Virus record (IMG/VR): IMGVR_UViG_3300046656_000055
Coordinates: 1-44,570 of that record
Length of the DNA: 44,570 bases
Reading direction: 5' to 3' (one strand)
Source of the DNA: a virus
Part shown: positions 12,421 to 19,481 of the stretch, one piece after another
Layout of the letters: every line of letters starts with the position of its first letter
How positions within the stretch are numbered: the stretch's first letter is position 1
Notes under the pieces: model-generated
Told to the model about the DNA's origin: nothing
Database searches by the model: none
Seen by the model: the letters and a program-made list of their open reading frames with translations, nothing else
Translations under genes and position numbers: made by a program

Positions 12421-12610
12421 TGAAATAAATAACCAATCCAGCAACTAAAAAAAATATAAATAATATCGCCCAAGCAATCCTTGACTCAGTGCGTTGTTGG
12501 TCTTCGAGGTCTTTTATATGCTGTTTTGCTTCTTCGTTATATTTATGAAGTCTAAGTAAGGCTGCTTTATATTCAAAATATTCTTTGTCCAATATTGGTA
12601 TGTCTTTCAT
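12413..12610 (-). CDS. Coiled-coil tail-anchored membrane protein
   Basis: The 65-residue protein has a charged helical N-terminal region (residues 10-45, LRLHKYNEEAKQHIKDLEDQQ) and a C-terminal membrane span (IAWAILFIFFLVAGLVIYF) leaving only two or three residues outside. The start overlaps the helicase stop as ATGA and follows GGGGGAGGAG. It is followed by another single-span gene. The role is unknown; it might tether replication or nuclease proteins to the membrane or be an early membrane-active factor. Confidence 0.72.
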   Translation of the reverse strand: MKDIPILDKEYFEYKAALLRLHKYNEEAKQHIKDLEDQQRTESRIAWAILFIFFLVAGLVIYFNV

Positions 12611-13974
12611 CTCCTCCCCCTTCCCTGCAATTTCATCTGCGCCCAGTAATAAGGATTGCGATAACCACGACTACGTCCCACAGCGACCAACTCTGCCATT
12701 GTCTTAGCCATACCTTCTTCACGTTTTCGTTTCGCACGGTTGATAATTTTTATTTCTTCCAGTTCTCCTTCGATTTCTTCAACAGTCCTAGGTTCAATTG
12801 GGTACAGTTCGCCACAATATGGGCACGCTTCTTGACCGCGAAATGAACAGGCGTAGCATTTTGGACAGATGCGGATACTTGGCCCAGTGGCAGCCTTACA
12901 CTCTTGCTTGGTTCTGCCTTCAAGGCTCCAGATAATCTCTTCATCTGGCAAGCCATGGCGTTGCATGTTGCCAGCCGCGTCCATAATAATAGCGTAATCT
13001 TTACCAGGATGAGTACGAAGACAACGGCCAATCATTTGCCTATGCAGTGACCGAGATTGTGTTGGTCTCAGGACGAGTAATGCTTCAATGCCAGAAATAT
13101 CTAGCCCTTCGCCGAATAAATCTACATTACTTAGGACTCTTATTTCTCCTCGTTCGAATTTTTTCATGATTCTATCGCGCTCATCGTAAGGAGTGTCTCC
13201 ATCGACATGAGCTGCAAGCATCCCTGCTATTTGGAATTGTCTAACGACGTTCTTTGAATGTTCTATGGATACACAGAAAATCAAAGTACGTTTACCTTTG
13301 GCTAATTTATTGTAATGGGAAAGCGCTTCGCCGGTGATGGTAGGTTTATCAACTGCTACTTGCAAGGCTGGTTTATAAAAATCTCCCATTCTCGTATGGA
13401 TACCAGAGACATCAATAGAAGTTTTCGGTGCAAAGACTTTGTAATCGGATAAATAACCTTGGGCGATAAGCGAACGAACGCTTGGCCCGTGAATCATATG
13501 TGTGAAGAATTTTCCTAGGCCTTTGCCGTCAAGACGTTCTGGGGTAGCAGTAAGGCCAATATGAAAAGCATGTGGATAGGAAGCATAAACTCTAGCCCAG
13601 GAGGCTGCAGAAAGGTGTTGGCATTCATCCCAGATAATTAAATCTGGCTTATCGAAACTGTAATGCCTATTTTTAAGTGTCTGAACGCTGCACACTTGAA
13701 CAAGTGGGTGAGGGTTTGCCGCAATACCAGCGCTTATAAGGCCATGTTCTACCCGTTCAGCAGTAAAACAATTCGCTGCCTGCATGAGAAGTTCTCGTCT
13801 ATGCACATTAAACCATGACCGCTTACGGCGTAATGCGGCAGATTTCAACATGTGGACGGCAAGTATGCGCTTACCACTACCGGTGGGTGCCTCAATTAAT
13901 ATTTTCCTTACGCCGCACCGCATCATAGATTGCGCTTCTTCGATAATAGCTTCCTGATATGGGCGAAGAATCAT
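12607..13974 (-). CDS. SF2 DEAD/DEAH-type helicase with C-terminal zinc ribbon
   Basis: The 455-residue protein has all core superfamily 2 motifs: RPYQ near residue 4, Walker A APTGSGK (29-35), DECQ (116-119), TATP (142-145), DGDTPYDER, and motif VI QMIGRCLR (313-320). Residues 370-387 hold four Cys in a CxxC...CxxC pattern (C370, C373, C384, C387) plus C376, a zinc ribbon. It probably unwinds or remodels DNA during replication or recombination. It is the first gene of the minus arm; upstream lies the divergent control region with a dyad at 13983-14016. Confidence 0.92.
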   Translation of the reverse strand: MILRPYQEAIIEEAQSMMRCGVRKILIEAPTGSGKRILAVHMLKSAALRRKRSWFNVHRRELLMQAANCFTAERVEHGLISAGIAANPHPLVQVCSVQTLKNRHYSFDKPDLIIWDECQHLSAASWARVYASYPHAFHIGLTATPERLDGKGLGKFFTHMIHGPSVRSLIAQGYLSDYKVFAPKTSIDVSGIHTRMGDFYKPALQVAVDKPTITGEALSHYNKLAKGKRTLIFCVSIEHSKNVVRQFQIAGMLAAHVDGDTPYDERDRIMKKFERGEIRVLSNVDLFGEGLDISGIEALLVLRPTQSRSLHRQMIGRCLRTHPGKDYAIIMDAAGNMQRHGLPDEEIIWSLEGRTKQECKAATGPSIRICPKCYACSFRGQEACPYCGELYPIEPRTVEEIEGELEEIKIINRAKRKREEGMAKTMAELVAVGRSRGYRNPYYWAQMKLQGRGRR

Positions 13975-14097: not shown

Positions 14098-14126
14098 TTG
14101 ACACGTAATATGGTCTGGCATAATAT
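14098..14126 (+). promoter_or_regulatory. Sigma70-like promoter for the plus arm
   Basis: TTGACA (14098-14103) is a perfect -35 box. CATAAT (14119-14124) preceded by TGG gives an extended -10 at a short 15-base spacing; TAATAT (14121-14126) gives a 17-base spacing. Transcription would begin about 25-30 bases before the first plus-arm gene at 14163. This implies host RNA polymerase starts the early genes, consistent with the lack of a phage RNA polymerase. Confidence 0.65.
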
Positions 14127-14162: not shown

Positions 14163-14375
14163 ATGATCTACTACGAATGCACATGCGATACATGCGGAGA
14201 AACGTTTGCTAATGAGTCTGCTAACTGTATTGATGAAGTTATCAGAGAACTAAAAGATTTAGATAATGAGTGTGACACTGGAGATAAGATGCTTTGTGAA
14301 GAATGCATGTTAAAGCATCAAGAGAAACTAGAAAGAGAAGATGCCATGCAATTTCAGTATGCGAAGGATTTATAG
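14163..14375 (+). CDS. Cys-rich zinc-binding-like early protein
   Basis: The 70-residue protein has an N-terminal CxCxxCGxT motif (YECTCDTCGET) and a later CEEC pair, with an acidic helical middle. The Cys pairs suggest one zinc site. It is the first gene after the early promoter, with GGAG 8 bases before the ATG. The N-terminal motif is shared with the protein at 21501-21716, so the two may be paralogues. Function is unknown; small zinc proteins made first after infection often modify host machinery. Confidence 0.75.
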   Translation: MIYYECTCDTCGETFANESANCIDEVIRELKDLDNECDTGDKMLCEECMLKHQEKLEREDAMQFQYAKDL

Positions 14376-14377
14376 AG

Positions 14378-14551
14378 ATGAAAGAACGCATCATATTATT
14401 AGTCATACTTGGCTTGATTGCATTATTTTTTATTACCTCAACTGCAATTTGTCTAAGTTGTTGGGGTCCATGTAATTCAAATATGGATTGTGAAGGCGGG
14501 TGCCATTGTCGCGGTGGGACAGTTCAAACCATTGGAGATTGTGAGTACTAA
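14378..14551 (+). CDS. Secreted or membrane-anchored cystine-knot-like peptide
   Basis: The 57-residue protein has an N-terminal signal or membrane segment (residues 4-24, ending TSTAI) followed by 33 residues with seven Cys at 25, 28, 32, 38, 42, 44 and 55. The spacing C25-x6-C32-x5-C38-x3-C42-x1-C44-x10-C55 matches the inhibitor cystine knot pattern, and the DCEGGCHCRG segment resembles squash-type knottins. C28 is the extra one. ATG 14378 lies two bases after the previous stop, with AGGA upstream. If exported, disulfides could form in the periplasm. A zinc-binding anchor is the alternative. Confidence 0.72.
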   Translation: MKERIILLVILGLIALFFITSTAICLSCWGPCNSNMDCEGGCHCRGGTVQTIGDCEY

Positions 14552-14552
14552 T

Positions 14553-14747
14553 ATGGAAAAACATGACAGAAACGAATTAAGAATGGAAGAAATTAGTCAA
14601 ACACTGTTTGAATACATCATTCATAAAATGTCCTGGGAAAAGAAAAAAACCACAACTGGTTTGGAATATGAAACAGCGCACTCTTTTTTATGGGAAATGA
14701 AAGAACCATCCGGGAGAATAAGTTATTGGAGGCAGTTAAAAAAATGA
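14553..14747 (+). CDS. Small charged early protein, unknown
   Basis: The 64-residue protein (MEKHDRNELRMEEISQTLFE at its N-terminus) is helical and charged, ending GRISYWRQLKK. The start at 14553 follows the previous stop by one base; an earlier in-frame ATG at 14490 would overlap the preceding gene by 60 bases. It overlaps the next gene as ATGA. No family was recognised. Confidence 0.65.
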   Translation: MEKHDRNELRMEEISQTLFEYIIHKMSWEKKKTTTGLEYETAHSFLWEMKEPSGRISYWRQLKK

Positions 14748-14956
14748 GTATTTATAAAAATTTGTTATTCGGCCGTAAGGTAAAAGAATATAGACAACTG
14801 AAAGGAATTACCCAAGAAGCATTAGGTAAGAAGCTCGGGTGCTTGCCCAGTCGGATTTCCGAATTAGAGAATGGTGACAGCAAGCGTTTAGAGCTTATTA
14901 CCGTGCTTAGAATCTGTAACGCCTTTGGCATTAAATTTGATGAATTGGTTGGATAG
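14744..14956 (+). CDS. XRE-family HTH regulator
   Basis: The 70-residue protein is a single Cro/C1-type helix-turn-helix domain: GRKVKEYRQLKGITQEALGKK, then LPSRISELENG and a closing LRICNAFGIKFDELVG. The recognition helix lies around residues 33-43. GGAGG is 10 bases before ATG 14744. It may repress or time the nearby early promoter, whose direct repeats are candidate targets. It lacks the C-terminal dimerisation/peptidase domain of lysogeny repressors, so it is not by itself evidence of a temperate life style. Confidence 0.88.
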   Translation: MSIYKNLLFGRKVKEYRQLKGITQEALGKKLGCLPSRISELENGDSKRLELITVLRICNAFGIKFDELVG

Positions 14957-14964
14957 GAGGGAAT

Positions 14965-15324
14965 ATGAGAGTAGTAGCGATCATATTATTAGTCTGCCTG
15001 ACAGCCTGTGCTTTAAAGCCAGCGCCGATCACTCTGCTTGATGTCAGAGAAGCGCTTGTTAGTTTGCCAGTTTCTAAGCGCGCTATCAAGGCAGAAGAAA
15101 TTTCTTGTCAGATTCAAGAAAGAAAGGCGCAGTTATTGGCGAAGAAAAAAGACCTTATGCCTACCTGGTGGATTATTATGTTTGCCCCGATTGCTGTAGG
15201 TGGCCCTTGGTATTTAGCGCAAATACCGGCAAGAAAAGCAACTGTGAAAGAAATAATACTCATGAACGATAAAGACCAAATTGTAAAAGAAATCATGTTA
15301 ACTACGCCAGCATCATCTAAATAG
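14965..15324 (+). CDS. Early lipoprotein
   Basis: The 119-residue protein starts with a short lipoprotein signal (MRVVAIILLVCLTAC); LTAC is a good lipobox with Cys-15 as lipidation site and Ala at +2, predicting outer-membrane sorting. A second hydrophobic stretch (residues ~68-88, WWIIMFAPIAVGG) may span or associate with membrane. AGGAGG precedes the ATG. Early phage lipoproteins often act in superinfection exclusion by blocking receptors or DNA entry; here that role is an inference from type and timing only. Confidence 0.82.
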   Translation: MRVVAIILLVCLTACALKPAPITLLDVREALVSLPVSKRAIKAEEISCQIQERKAQLLAKKKDLMPTWWIIMFAPIAVGGPWYLAQIPARKATVKEIILMNDKDQIVKEIMLTTPASSK

Positions 15325-15335
15325 GGAGAAAAATA

Positions 15336-16379
15336 ATGTTCAAACCAGCAGAAAATCAACAAGCATTTTTAAAGCTAGGAGTGTACGGTAATGCGGGTTC
15401 CGGGAAGTCATACACCTCAGCGTTAATCGCAATTGGTATCTTCAAGCGCCTTACTAATGGTGCGCCTGCTAAGCCAGTATTCATGCTTGATACGGAATCA
15501 GGGTCTGATTATTTAATTCCGTTATTCAAAAATAATAACGTTCCTTTTCATACTGATAAAACCCGTTCGTTCTCAGAACTTGTTGATGCTGTCTCGGTTG
15601 CTGAGAAAGAAGCGTCTGTCTTAATTATAGATAGTATCACTCACTTCTGGTCTGAGATTCAAGACGCCTACCTTAAAAAGACAGGGCGCAAACGTTTAAC
15701 GTTAGCAGACTGGGGGCAGATTAAATCGACGTGGAGGATTTTTACTGACGCATTCCTTAATAGTAAATGCCACATTATTGTTTGCGGCCGGGCAAGAGAT
15801 GTAACTGATTTCCAGGAAGAAGAAGACGGCACGAAGCAATTCGTTAAGGTGGGGACGATGATGGCTACAGAGAAAAATCTCGCCTATGAGCCAAGCTTAT
15901 TGGTTGAAATGGTAAAAGAAATGCGGCCAACAAAACAAAAAGAAGGGCAGATGTGGAATCATACGGCGTATGTCCTTAAAGACCGTTCAACCTTACTTGA
16001 AGGCAAATCATTTATCAACCCAACCTTCAAAGAATTTGAACCGTTTTTTAATTTCCTTAATATCGGCGGAGAACATCTATCGGTTGATACAACTCACGAT
16101 TCCTCTGCCATGTTCGAAGACGGCAATGACAGGAACTACGCTTGGAAGAAAAAACAATGTGAAATCATGGTTGAAGAGATTGAAGGGCTTCTAACTTCAT
16201 CTTACCCAGGGCAATCTGCAGCAGAGAAGAAGATTAAAGTTGACTTGATCGAAGAGTGTTTCGGTACTCGATCATGGAAGAAAGTGGAAGAAATGATGAT
16301 GGATGACTTAAAGATTGGAACGGAACGATTAGTTAAGGCAATTAAAGCAAGGAAGGAAACGCCAGATGCCGCACATTAA
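15336..16379 (+). CDS. Sak4-like / AAA_24 phage ATPase (recombinase)
   Basis: The 347-residue protein has Walker A GNAGSGKS (18-25) close to the N-terminus and Walker B VLIIDSI (95-101, D99), with MLDTESGS in between. This matches phage nucleotide-binding proteins of the AAA_24 type that include Sak4-like single-strand annealing recombinases. It is followed directly by a DUF669 SSB-like gene, the usual partner. It probably loads on single-stranded DNA for recombination-dependent replication. GGGAG precedes the ATG. Confidence 0.85.
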   Translation: MFKPAENQQAFLKLGVYGNAGSGKSYTSALIAIGIFKRLTNGAPAKPVFMLDTESGSDYLIPLFKNNNVPFHTDKTRSFSELVDAVSVAEKEASVLIIDSITHFWSEIQDAYLKKTGRKRLTLADWGQIKSTWRIFTDAFLNSKCHIIVCGRARDVTDFQEEEDGTKQFVKVGTMMATEKNLAYEPSLLVEMVKEMRPTKQKEGQMWNHTAYVLKDRSTLLEGKSFINPTFKEFEPFFNFLNIGGEHLSVDTTHDSSAMFEDGNDRNYAWKKKQCEIMVEEIEGLLTSSYPGQSAAEKKIKVDLIEECFGTRSWKKVEEMMMDDLKIGTERLVKAIKARKETPDAAH

Positions 16380-16824
16380 TAATAAGGAAGCGCCGGAACC
16401 CACTGATAAAATGGATTACGATGCAGTGCCTGAAGGAACTTATCACGTAAAGGTTGACGAAATTTATGAACGCTCTACATCCAAGGGAGATTGCATGTGG
16501 GGATTAAGACTAAAAATTGTTGACGGTCCACATGAAGGCGCATCCATTTTTGATAACATGGTTTTTTCAGATAATAAACGCGCTAAGTCAAGAGTGAAAC
16601 TTATTACTAGCAGACTCGGGATTCCAAAAGATTACATCGGCGAACTCACCATGGCCATGCTTCTTGATAAAGAGTGCAAGGTTGTTACGACTGTAGATTT
16701 CTATCAAGGGAAAAAGAAAAACGTAATTCCTTTTGATGGGTATATCCGTATCGATGATGAACCAGCTAAAGAAACAGCGGCGGCACCCGCTAAATTGGAG
16801 GACTCGGACGATATTCCGTTTTAG
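16366..16824 (+). CDS. DUF669 single-strand-DNA-binding-like protein
   Basis: The 152-residue protein has the DUF669 core (VPEGTYHVKVDEIYERSTSKG, then LRLKIVDGPHEGASIFDNMV), which reads as an OB-like beta barrel. It ends in an acidic tail with DSDDIPF, the same DDIPF tip that bacterial SSB uses to recruit partner proteins. This strongly suggests an SSB that cooperates with the Sak4-like ATPase upstream, which it overlaps by 14 bases. AAGGAAA lies upstream of the ATG. Confidence 0.85.
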   Translation: MPHINNKEAPEPTDKMDYDAVPEGTYHVKVDEIYERSTSKGDCMWGLRLKIVDGPHEGASIFDNMVFSDNKRAKSRVKLITSRLGIPKDYIGELTMAMLLDKECKVVTTVDFYQGKKKNVIPFDGYIRIDDEPAKETAAAPAKLEDSDDIPF

Positions 16825-18627: not shown

Positions 18628-18831
18628 ATGAGTGCTGATAATAAATTAAAGTGGGAAGCGATAATCTGGCCAGTTGATGGCCCAAGACCATGCAGTGGTA
18701 AAGGTAGATGCCTAGCAATCCCAGAATCAGAAGCAATTTACCTATCTACCTGCGAGCGCCTGCTTAAAGCAATCGTCCTAGACAAAGACTACACAGCAAG
18801 GGCTGAAGCGCTGGAGATGTTTAAGAAATGA
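18628..18831 (+). CDS. Small early protein, unknown
   Basis: The 67-residue protein has a GPRPCSGKGRCLAIPESEA turn and a C-terminal helix. GAGGTGAAGAA precedes the ATG. It overlaps the next gene as ATGA. The SGKG string is not a Walker motif in context. No family was recognised. Confidence 0.62.
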   Translation: MSADNKLKWEAIIWPVDGPRPCSGKGRCLAIPESEAIYLSTCERLLKAIVLDKDYTARAEALEMFKK

Positions 18832-19481
18832 GTGAAGAGAAGAAAAAAGTTTGGTGGGTGTGGAATCATTCCCAGTGGGATTGCAATTACAGCCGCGTTG
18901 ATAAACATTATCCTGAATGCAATACATATGGATGGTTACCATGCTTTGAATGCAAACCTCACTACTGGGTTGAGTCAGTCGAAAAGCCAGCACATGATCC
19001 TGATAAAGGCTTAGATAACTATCACAACCAAGTCAAAATCACCGTCGATTGCCACGGTGGTTGCGGTAGAAGAAAAGATGTACCATCTGGATGCCTATTT
19101 CTTTGCGATGTTTGTGGAGAAGAGATGGCTAGATATCCTTTAAACACGCCGGTTAAAACATCGGAACCCCAGCGCGCTGACTCAGCTAAGGGCGATGGTA
19201 TGGAGGCTGATGAGGGTGCAGGTCAGTGCAACGGCCCGAAGGCATTCCATAAACCGGCTCTTACCCAAAACCCCATGCGCTTTCGTGGTCATATGCGTGG
19301 GTGCAATGCTTGGAGATGGGAGAATTATAATCGATGTTCATGCTGGAGATGGCTTAATGATTATCGAGACGGTCATGATTGTATGTCTGCTGATTATGAT
19401 GCTTGTAAATACACGACCAAAGACATTGAAAACAAATTTGTAGACCCATTCATCCCCCGCTTCGATTCGGATTTGGATTAA
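18828..19481 (+). CDS. Cys-rich multi-zinc-ribbon protein
   Basis: The 217-residue protein has many Cys and Trp. Pairs include CNTYGWLPCFEC (about residues 31-42), CHGGCGRR and CLFLCDVCG (about 75-96), and CNAWRWENYNRCSCW (about 158-173), separated by a low-complexity acidic linker near residues 110-135. At least two zinc ribbons are likely. The linker may mark a fusion of two small proteins. It is the last gene before the opposite-strand Ig-like gene, and a hairpin follows at 19487-19513. Function is unknown. Confidence 0.7.
   Translation: MSEEKKKVWWVWNHSQWDCNYSRVDKHYPECNTYGWLPCFECKPHYWVESVEKPAHDPDKGLDNYHNQVKITVDCHGGCGRRKDVPSGCLFLCDVCGEEMARYPLNTPVKTSEPQRADSAKGDGMEADEGAGQCNGPKAFHKPALTQNPMRFRGHMRGCNAWRWENYNRCSCWRWLNDYRDGHDCMSADYDACKYTTKDIENKFVDPFIPRFDSDLD

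What the first reader, a model, noticed from the sequence alone, without database searches (positions are those of the whole stretch)
14378..14551. Phage-encoded cystine-knot-like peptide behind a signal sequence
A 57-residue early protein has a hydrophobic export segment followed by a 33-residue domain whose Cys spacing (x6, x5, x3, x1, x10) fits the inhibitor cystine knot, with a DCEGGCHCRG core close to squash-type knottins. Such folds are known from eukaryotic toxins and inhibitors; I know of no described case in an early phage gene. It could inhibit a periplasmic protease, block a receptor, or act on the envelope.
Basis: partly seen in the sequence, partly recalled or inferred. Interest (0 to 1): 0.7.

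Follow-up and report, generated by a model that had tools for sequence, protein, structure and literature searches.

The report
Exported cystine-knot-like phage peptide
An uncultivated bacterial virus makes, from its early operon, a tiny exported protein built like the disulfide-knotted mini-proteins of plants and venoms, and the same cysteine module turns up in the tails of other phages, so this kind of fold may be in regular use by phages; what the peptide does is not yet known.

Summary
The gene is real: 57 aa, second gene of a tightly packed rightward early operon behind a TTGACA-17-TAATAT promoter in an epsilon15-like podophage. There are seven Cys (25, 28, 32, 38, 42, 44, 55), not six, and C28 was skipped. 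The best knot candidate is C28-C55 (x3, x5, x3, x1, x10), which is closer to cyclotides (tight x3/x1 ring) than to squash inhibitors. Direct homology searches found nothing. Degenerate DNA-pattern scans of IMG/VR then uncovered an unnamed module, C-x-G-x-C-x4-D-C-x2-G-C-x-C-x4-C, often in tandem, in proteins of uncultivated phages, at least two of them in tail cassettes. P0001 shares all eight of its invariant positions. The scans also found a second exported peptide, L244 (81 aa), in a different phage: 39% identical, all seven Cys conserved, same long last loop. A profile of the tail modules hits PDB knottins only, but weakly (E 0.16-1.5). AlphaFold models without an alignment are low confidence, so the knot is inferred, not shown. 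Squash-type protease inhibition is disfavoured: no intact x6 loop, no P1 Lys/Arg. Best mechanistic guess (about 0.3): an oxidised periplasmic, possibly membrane-anchored, envelope or receptor blocker, acting like Llp/Cor in superinfection exclusion.

The parts
14098..14126 (+). sigma-70-like promoter TTGACA-17-TAATAT reading into the operon
   Evidence: consensus scan, 10 of 12, -35 perfect (3 promoter-like sites found in the region against 4.4 expected in shuffles, so the scan alone proves nothing; position 5' of the first gene, in the gap between divergent gene sets, supports it)
14163..14375 (+). first gene of the operon, 70 aa, Cys-rich (CxC, CxxC, CxxC), zinc-finger-like, no significant family
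14364..14368 (+). AAGGA, probable Shine-Dalgarno of the peptide gene (9 nt to ATG), inside the end of the upstream gene
   Evidence: sequence
14378..14551 (+). P0001, 57-aa exported cystine-knot-like peptide
14378..14446 (+). residues 1-23: n-region MKER and a long hydrophobic stretch; possible signal peptidase I site S-T-A/I after residue 23, or an uncleaved anchor
   Evidence: sequence; AF2 helix 2-26
14450..14452 (+). Cys25, the odd seventh Cys between the hydrophobic segment and the knot candidate; also present in L244 (C31)
14459..14542 (+). Cys28-Cys55: six-Cys module x3, x5, x3, x1, x10 (C-W-G-P-C-N-S-N-M-D-C-E-G-G-C-H-C-x10-C)
   Evidence: all 8 invariant columns of the tail module; profile score
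14553..14747 (+). next operon gene, 64 aa, no family
14744..14956 (+). HTH (Cro/CI-type) regulator, overlaps the previous gene by 4 nt
   Evidence: Pfam HTH_3 E 4e-13
14965..15324 (+). 119-aa putative lipoprotein (LTAC lipobox) with a second hydrophobic segment; second predicted exported protein of the operon
   Evidence: sequence
15336..16379 (+). AAA_24 / Sak4-like annealing protein, followed by an SSB gene; marks the operon as early

Best explanation
P0001 is a genuine early phage gene product: a membrane-targeted, probably periplasmic mini-protein. Its C-terminal domain is a six-Cys module (C28, C32, C38, C42, C44, C55; expected pairing 1-4, 2-5, 3-6) of the inhibitor-cystine-knot type, plus one membrane-proximal extra Cys (C25). 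The module belongs to a family found here in phages: the same framework occurs, often in tandem, in virion proteins of uncultivated phages, and one other exported peptide (L244) has the same architecture. Likely course: early transcription; Sec-dependent insertion with N-in/C-out topology; oxidation of the domain by the host's periplasmic disulfide machinery; the resulting rigid knob, with its long loop 5 (RGGTVQTIGD), binds an envelope target. The most likely purpose is to alter or block an envelope component during infection, for instance exclusion of a second phage by jamming a receptor or injection route from the periplasmic side, as Llp/Cor do. Shown: the gene, its operon, the hydrophobic segment, the shared framework, the second peptide. 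Inferred: export and oxidation, knot topology (about 0.65), envelope or superinfection role (about 0.3). The confidence below is for the structural reading as a whole, not for the superinfection role.
For: Gene reality and early operon. P0001 carries all 8 invariant columns of 16 modules translated from other phages. Cys28 and Gly30 were not required by the scan that found those modules, yet they are invariant in them and present in P0001. Profile of 27 modules without P0001: mature P0001 22.6 bits and L244 22.9, against at most 16.7 for 14 chance ORFs matching the same scan pattern; 0.15% of Cys-fixed shuffles reach P0001's score. L244: 81 aa, hydrophobic segment followed by 7 Cys, loop 5 of 12, 39% identity, plus conserved G30, D37, G41, T51, G53. 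A profile of the tail modules hits only knottins and engineered knottins in the PDB (squash inhibitors, kiwellin, WCI, type-9 conotoxins). The low-confidence model of the mature domain is nearest to squash inhibitor 1mct (TM about 0.5). Functional analogy: small periplasmic phage proteins jam receptors (T5 Llp, PMC9586334).
Against: All PDB sequence and fold matches are individually insignificant (E 0.05-10). AF2 confidence is low. Seven Cys leave one unpaired. Loop 5 (x10) is longer than in the tail modules (x4; x6 in three). The modules were found with patterns derived from P0001, so part of the agreement (D37, G41) is by selection. No isolate phage or plasmid carries a close relative, and nothing directly ties the gene to superinfection exclusion. 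Neither this phage nor L244's shows a tyrosine integrase, so a role in lysogeny is not supported.
Confidence: 0.5

Rival explanations
1. A small single-span membrane peptide whose Cys act on the envelope redox system, bind metal, or simply crosslink dimers; no cystine knot. The resemblance to knottins is convergent or fortuitous.
For: Long hydrophobic stretch modelled as helix 2-26; odd number of Cys; generic ICK spacing fits 12% of random placements of 7 Cys; low-confidence models.
Against: Specific conserved positions shared with L244 and with the tail modules and the knottin-only profile hits are hard to explain by chance; no zinc-binding family matches P0001.
Confidence: 0.25
2. A secreted protease inhibitor working like a squash trypsin inhibitor, protecting phage proteins from periplasmic proteases or disabling a host protease.
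For: NSNMDCEGGCHCRG resembles the squash core; the weak phmmer hits include MCoTI-II and relatives.
Against: Squash inhibitors use the x6 loop between C1 and C2 with P1 Lys/Arg (own knowledge). Here that stretch is LSCWGP, split by C28 and without Lys/Arg; the last loop is x10 and not x5. The tail-module profile gives MCoTI-II only 3.6 bits.
Confidence: 0.06
3. A secreted or virion-associated copy of a receptor-binding tail module: the peptide competes for, or decorates, the same host structure that tail modules bind in other phages.
For: The same module occurs in proteins encoded next to tape-measure and tail genes.
Against: The window's own tail proteins lack the module (one search finds only P0001 in the window), and L244's record holds only the peptide copy, so neither phage is known to use the module for binding.
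Confidence: 0.12
4. Spurious ORF or recent orphan without function.
For: No homologue at ordinary sensitivity.
Against: Tight spacing with both neighbours, Shine-Dalgarno, codon test P = 0.008, homologous peptide in a different phage.
Confidence: 0.05

Closest known systems
Inhibitor cystine knot / knottin fold (squash trypsin inhibitors, cyclotides, type-9 conotoxins, kiwellin N-terminal domain)
   Same: Small secreted domain, six Cys with compatible spacing and Cx1C between C4 and C5; x3, x5, x3, x1 is close to the cyclotide x3, x4, x4, x1; DC..GC.C core as in squash inhibitors; profile hits confined to knottins.
   Different: Phage-encoded; seventh Cys; x10 loop 5; C-x-G-x-C signature; no significant sequence match to any one family; disulfide pairing unproven.
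Unnamed Cys-module of phage tail-cassette proteins
   Same: All 8 invariant positions and the x3, x5, x3, x1 spacing.
   Different: Those are repeats or domains in larger, mostly leaderless proteins with x4 last loop; P0001 is a single exported module with x10.
L244 peptide (IMGVR_UViG_3300038415_000184)
   Same: Hydrophobic leader, seven Cys in register, long loop 5, G/D/G/T/G positions; 39% identity.
   Different: 81 aa with a C-terminal tail; lies near a Tlde1/YkuD gene and, further on, RecT, in a phage in which the epsilon15-type portal family was not found.
Llp/Cor superinfection-exclusion lipoproteins (T5, T1, phi80)
   Same: Small, phage-encoded, exported; Llp and Cor contain a disulfide (PMC9586334).
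   Different: No lipobox at either candidate Cys of P0001; no sequence relation; different Cys framework.
Virus-encoded knottins of eukaryotic viruses
   Same: Virus-encoded small Cys-knot peptides; the KNOTTIN classification has a 'Virus1' family (PMC2984590).
   Different: Viruses of eukaryotes (own knowledge); no phage example turned up in the papers searched.

Membership tests
Inhibitor cystine knot (knottin) | six Cys with spacings within the ICK range | tested here: met
   C28-C55: x3, x5, x3, x1, x10; but 12% of random placements of 7 Cys also fit a generic ICK range
Inhibitor cystine knot (knottin) | disulfide pairing C1-C4, C2-C5, C3-C6 with the third bond through the ring | not testable with these tools
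   needs mass spectrometry or NMR; no coordinates of the models were available
Inhibitor cystine knot (knottin) | small antiparallel beta-sheet core | tested here: inconclusive
   low-confidence model has a hairpin over residues 42-51 (pLDDT 57.8); Foldseek top match 1mct_I E 2.0
Inhibitor cystine knot (knottin) | significant sequence relation to a known knottin family | tested here: not met
   best PDB hits E 0.05-5; no Pfam, PHROG or NCBIfam hit of significance
Squash trypsin inhibitor family | spacing x6, x5, x3, x1, x5 | tested here: not met
   C28 interrupts the x6 loop; last loop x10
Squash trypsin inhibitor family | P1 Lys/Arg in loop 1 | tested here: not met
   loop is LSCWGP
Phage tail Cys-module (C-x-G-x-C-x4-D-C-x2-G-C-x-C-xn-C) | eight invariant positions | tested here: met
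   profile score above all pattern-matched chance ORFs
Phage tail Cys-module (C-x-G-x-C-x4-D-C-x2-G-C-x-C-xn-C) | last loop of 4 residues | tested here: not met
   10 in P0001, 12 in L244; tail modules mostly 4, some 6
Exported peptide pair P0001/L244 | hydrophobic leader followed by seven Cys in register and long loop 5 | tested here: met
Llp/Cor superinfection-exclusion lipoproteins | lipobox with lipidated Cys | tested here: not met
   residue -1 of C25 is Ile; C28 has Cys at -3 and Leu at -2 (by inspection)
Zinc-binding domain | recognisable zinc-ligand family | tested here: not met
   no zinc family among Pfam hits up to E 1

The most novel reading that the evidence does not exclude
Phages possess their own lineage of cystine-knot modules, used as tandem domains in tail proteins and, detached behind a signal segment, as exported early effectors that act on the host envelope: a prokaryotic-virus counterpart of venom and plant knottins.
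Probability: 0.35. Interest if true: 0.85.

Novelty: new variant of a known kind. Interest (0 to 1): 0.6.

Why it matters
Cystine knots are regarded as a fold of eukaryotes and their viruses. A phage lineage of such modules would show the fold in prokaryotic viruses, give ultra-stable scaffolds with a natural bacterial-envelope target, and point to a new class of small early phage effectors made in the host's oxidising periplasm. It can be tested directly with a short peptide.

Tried and rejected
Ordinary homology: tblastn of P0001 in phages and plasmids and peptide-pattern search of IMG/VR: nothing. The single hit in bacterial genomes (L184, Nitrospiria) is an out-of-frame reading antisense to two genes, hence chance. 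Close relatives of the phage through its AAA_24 and primase/helicase genes: none in IMG/VR. The Pfam CD59 hit (E 0.024) and serum-lectin hit (E 0.05) rest largely on the leader plus Cys and are not significant. The Foldseek search of viral models gave noise. The Altiarchaeum virus and cyanophage hits carry a different, four-Cys repeat. Literature searches for phage knottins in the open-access library found none.

Full report
OBSERVATION. The 57-codon ORF at 14378-14551 (+) exists as described. It is the second gene of a compact operon: 14163-14375, 14378-14551, 14553-14747, 14744-14956 (HTH), 14965-15324 (putative lipoprotein), 15336-16379 (AAA_24/Sak4-like), 16366-16824 (SSB). The operon is divergent from a helicase gene (12607-13974, minus). 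TTGACA-17-TAATAT stands 36 bases before the first gene. The ORF has an AAGGA at 9 nt and starts 2 nt after the upstream stop. Its synonymous codon use matches the phage's large genes (P = 0.008). So it is a gene, and by its position and company an early one. The contig is a 44.6-kb virus record with a portal about 45% identical to those of epsilon15-type phages and terminase, head and tail genes of that kind. No tyrosine integrase was found.

CORRECTION. The exported part has seven Cys, not six: C25, C28, C32, C38, C42, C44, C55. Read from C28 the spacing is x3, x5, x3, x1, x10. In ICK terms this gives a tight ring (x3 plus x1) as in cyclotides (x3, x4, x4, x1, x4, own knowledge) rather than the wider ring of squash inhibitors (x6, x5, x3, x1, x5). 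Spacing alone is weak evidence: 12% of random placements of seven Cys fit a generic ICK range, although only 0.13% give the exact squash-like run x6, x5, x3, x1.

RELATIVES. Direct searches failed, and the one genome hit is a chance antisense match. A scan of viral contigs for C-x6-C-x4-D-C-x2-G-C-x-C gave 65 stretches. Among them is a set of real ORFs with a module that begins C-x-G-x-C, a feature the pattern had not asked for. In tandem arrays the unit is C-x-G-x-C-x4-D-C-x2-G-C-x-C-x4-C. In L207 and L201 the module protein lies a few genes after the tape-measure gene (ORF maps), so it is probably a tail-tip protein. Pfam, PHROGs and NCBIfam gave no model for the module in the proteins tested. 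P0001 has all eight invariant columns. A second scan on the unit itself returned about 27 module copies with an x4 last loop and a handful with x6, plus one striking case. L244 encodes an 81-aa peptide with a hydrophobic leader, seven Cys in register with P0001 and a 12-residue last loop, preceded by a strong Shine-Dalgarno. The two peptides are 39% identical; besides the seven Cys they share G30, D37, G41, T51 and G53. L244's phage has a Tlde1/YkuD gene and RecT nearby. The epsilon15-type portal family was not found in it, but that search rang in no control genome; it is read beside, where the same family fits the window's portal at E 1e-143. The two phages are probably not close kin.

STATISTICS. 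A profile of 27 tail modules, P0001 left out, scores mature P0001 at 22.6 bits and L244 at 22.9. Fourteen chance ORFs that satisfy the same scan pattern score at most 16.7; 0.15% of Cys-fixed shuffles reach P0001's score, no full shuffle does. In the whole six-frame window only this ORF stands out (E 5e-5, next 2.5; all). The modules were found with patterns taken from P0001, so D37 and G41 are partly selected; C28 and G30 were not asked for in the first scan. L244 was found by the second scan, which did ask for the C-x-G-x-C core, so its agreement outside that core (leader, seventh Cys, long loop 5, T51, G53) is the independent part.

FOLD. Two AF2 runs without an alignment gave low confidence (mature 57.8; full length 66.9 with helix 2-26). 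The mature model has a hairpin over residues 42-51 and is nearest, insignificantly, to squash inhibitor 1mct. More telling is the profile of the tail modules against PDB sequences: all ten best hits are knottins or engineered knottins (squash inhibitors, kiwellin, WCI, type-9 conotoxins; fold assignments from own knowledge), though at E 0.16-1.5. I put the knot at about 0.65. Because P0001 and L244 both have an odd Cys between leader and knot, a disulfide-linked dimer or a mixed disulfide is possible.

MECHANISM. Shown: early operon, hydrophobic export or anchor segment, conserved module. Inferred: Sec insertion, N-in/C-out (K2 and R4 at the N terminus), oxidation in the periplasm, binding through loop 5. 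A squash-type inhibitor is unlikely because loop 1 is split by C28 and has no P1 Lys/Arg. No lipobox is present, so it is not an Llp/Cor-type lipoprotein, but it may work like one: T5 Llp is a small phage protein that jams the receptor FhuA from the periplasm and excludes further phages (PMC9586334). I commit to an envelope-blocking or exclusion role at about 0.3.

NOVELTY. ICK peptides are known from eukaryotes and from some of their viruses (a 'Virus1' knottin family is named in PMC2984590). I found no phage example in the open-access library, which omits most subscription journals. I rate it a new variant of a known kind; the wider claim of a phage lineage of cystine-knot modules needs disulfide mapping.

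Noticed in passing
L189, L190, L207, L223, L233, L240, L264 (tail-cassette ORFs): A family of about 160-300-aa phage proteins beginning M-x-C-x-C-C and carrying one to three six-Cys modules; no Pfam or PHROG model matched those tested.
   Followed up: partly
L202:2-3064 (-); also L247, L251, L252, L273, L274: Very large ORFs (800-1780 aa) with many different Cys-rich modules, several of the knot type.
   Followed up: no
L187:7121-9283 and L235:9283-11874: Large proteins starting with a hydrophobic segment followed at once by the six-Cys module, then a weakly baseplate- or connector-like body.
   Followed up: no
window 18828-19481 (+): 217-aa early protein with many Cys in pairs and no PHROG match.
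   Followed up: no
window 14965-15324 (+): 119-aa putative lipoprotein (LTAC lipobox) with an extra membrane segment in the same operon; possible partner of the peptide.
   Followed up: no
L244:9003-9512 (-): Secreted 170-aa protein directly downstream of the homologous peptide; a Tlde1/YkuD gene lies upstream, so the peptide sits among envelope-directed genes.
   Followed up: partly
L238:3902-4522 (Synechococcus phage S-SCSM2R) and L239:3899-4324 (Altiarchaeum virus): Four-Cys repeats C-x4-DC-x2-G-x2-C-x2-G-x-C in a cyanophage baseplate-hub protein and an archaeal virus protein, perhaps distant cousins of the six-Cys module.
   Followed up: partly
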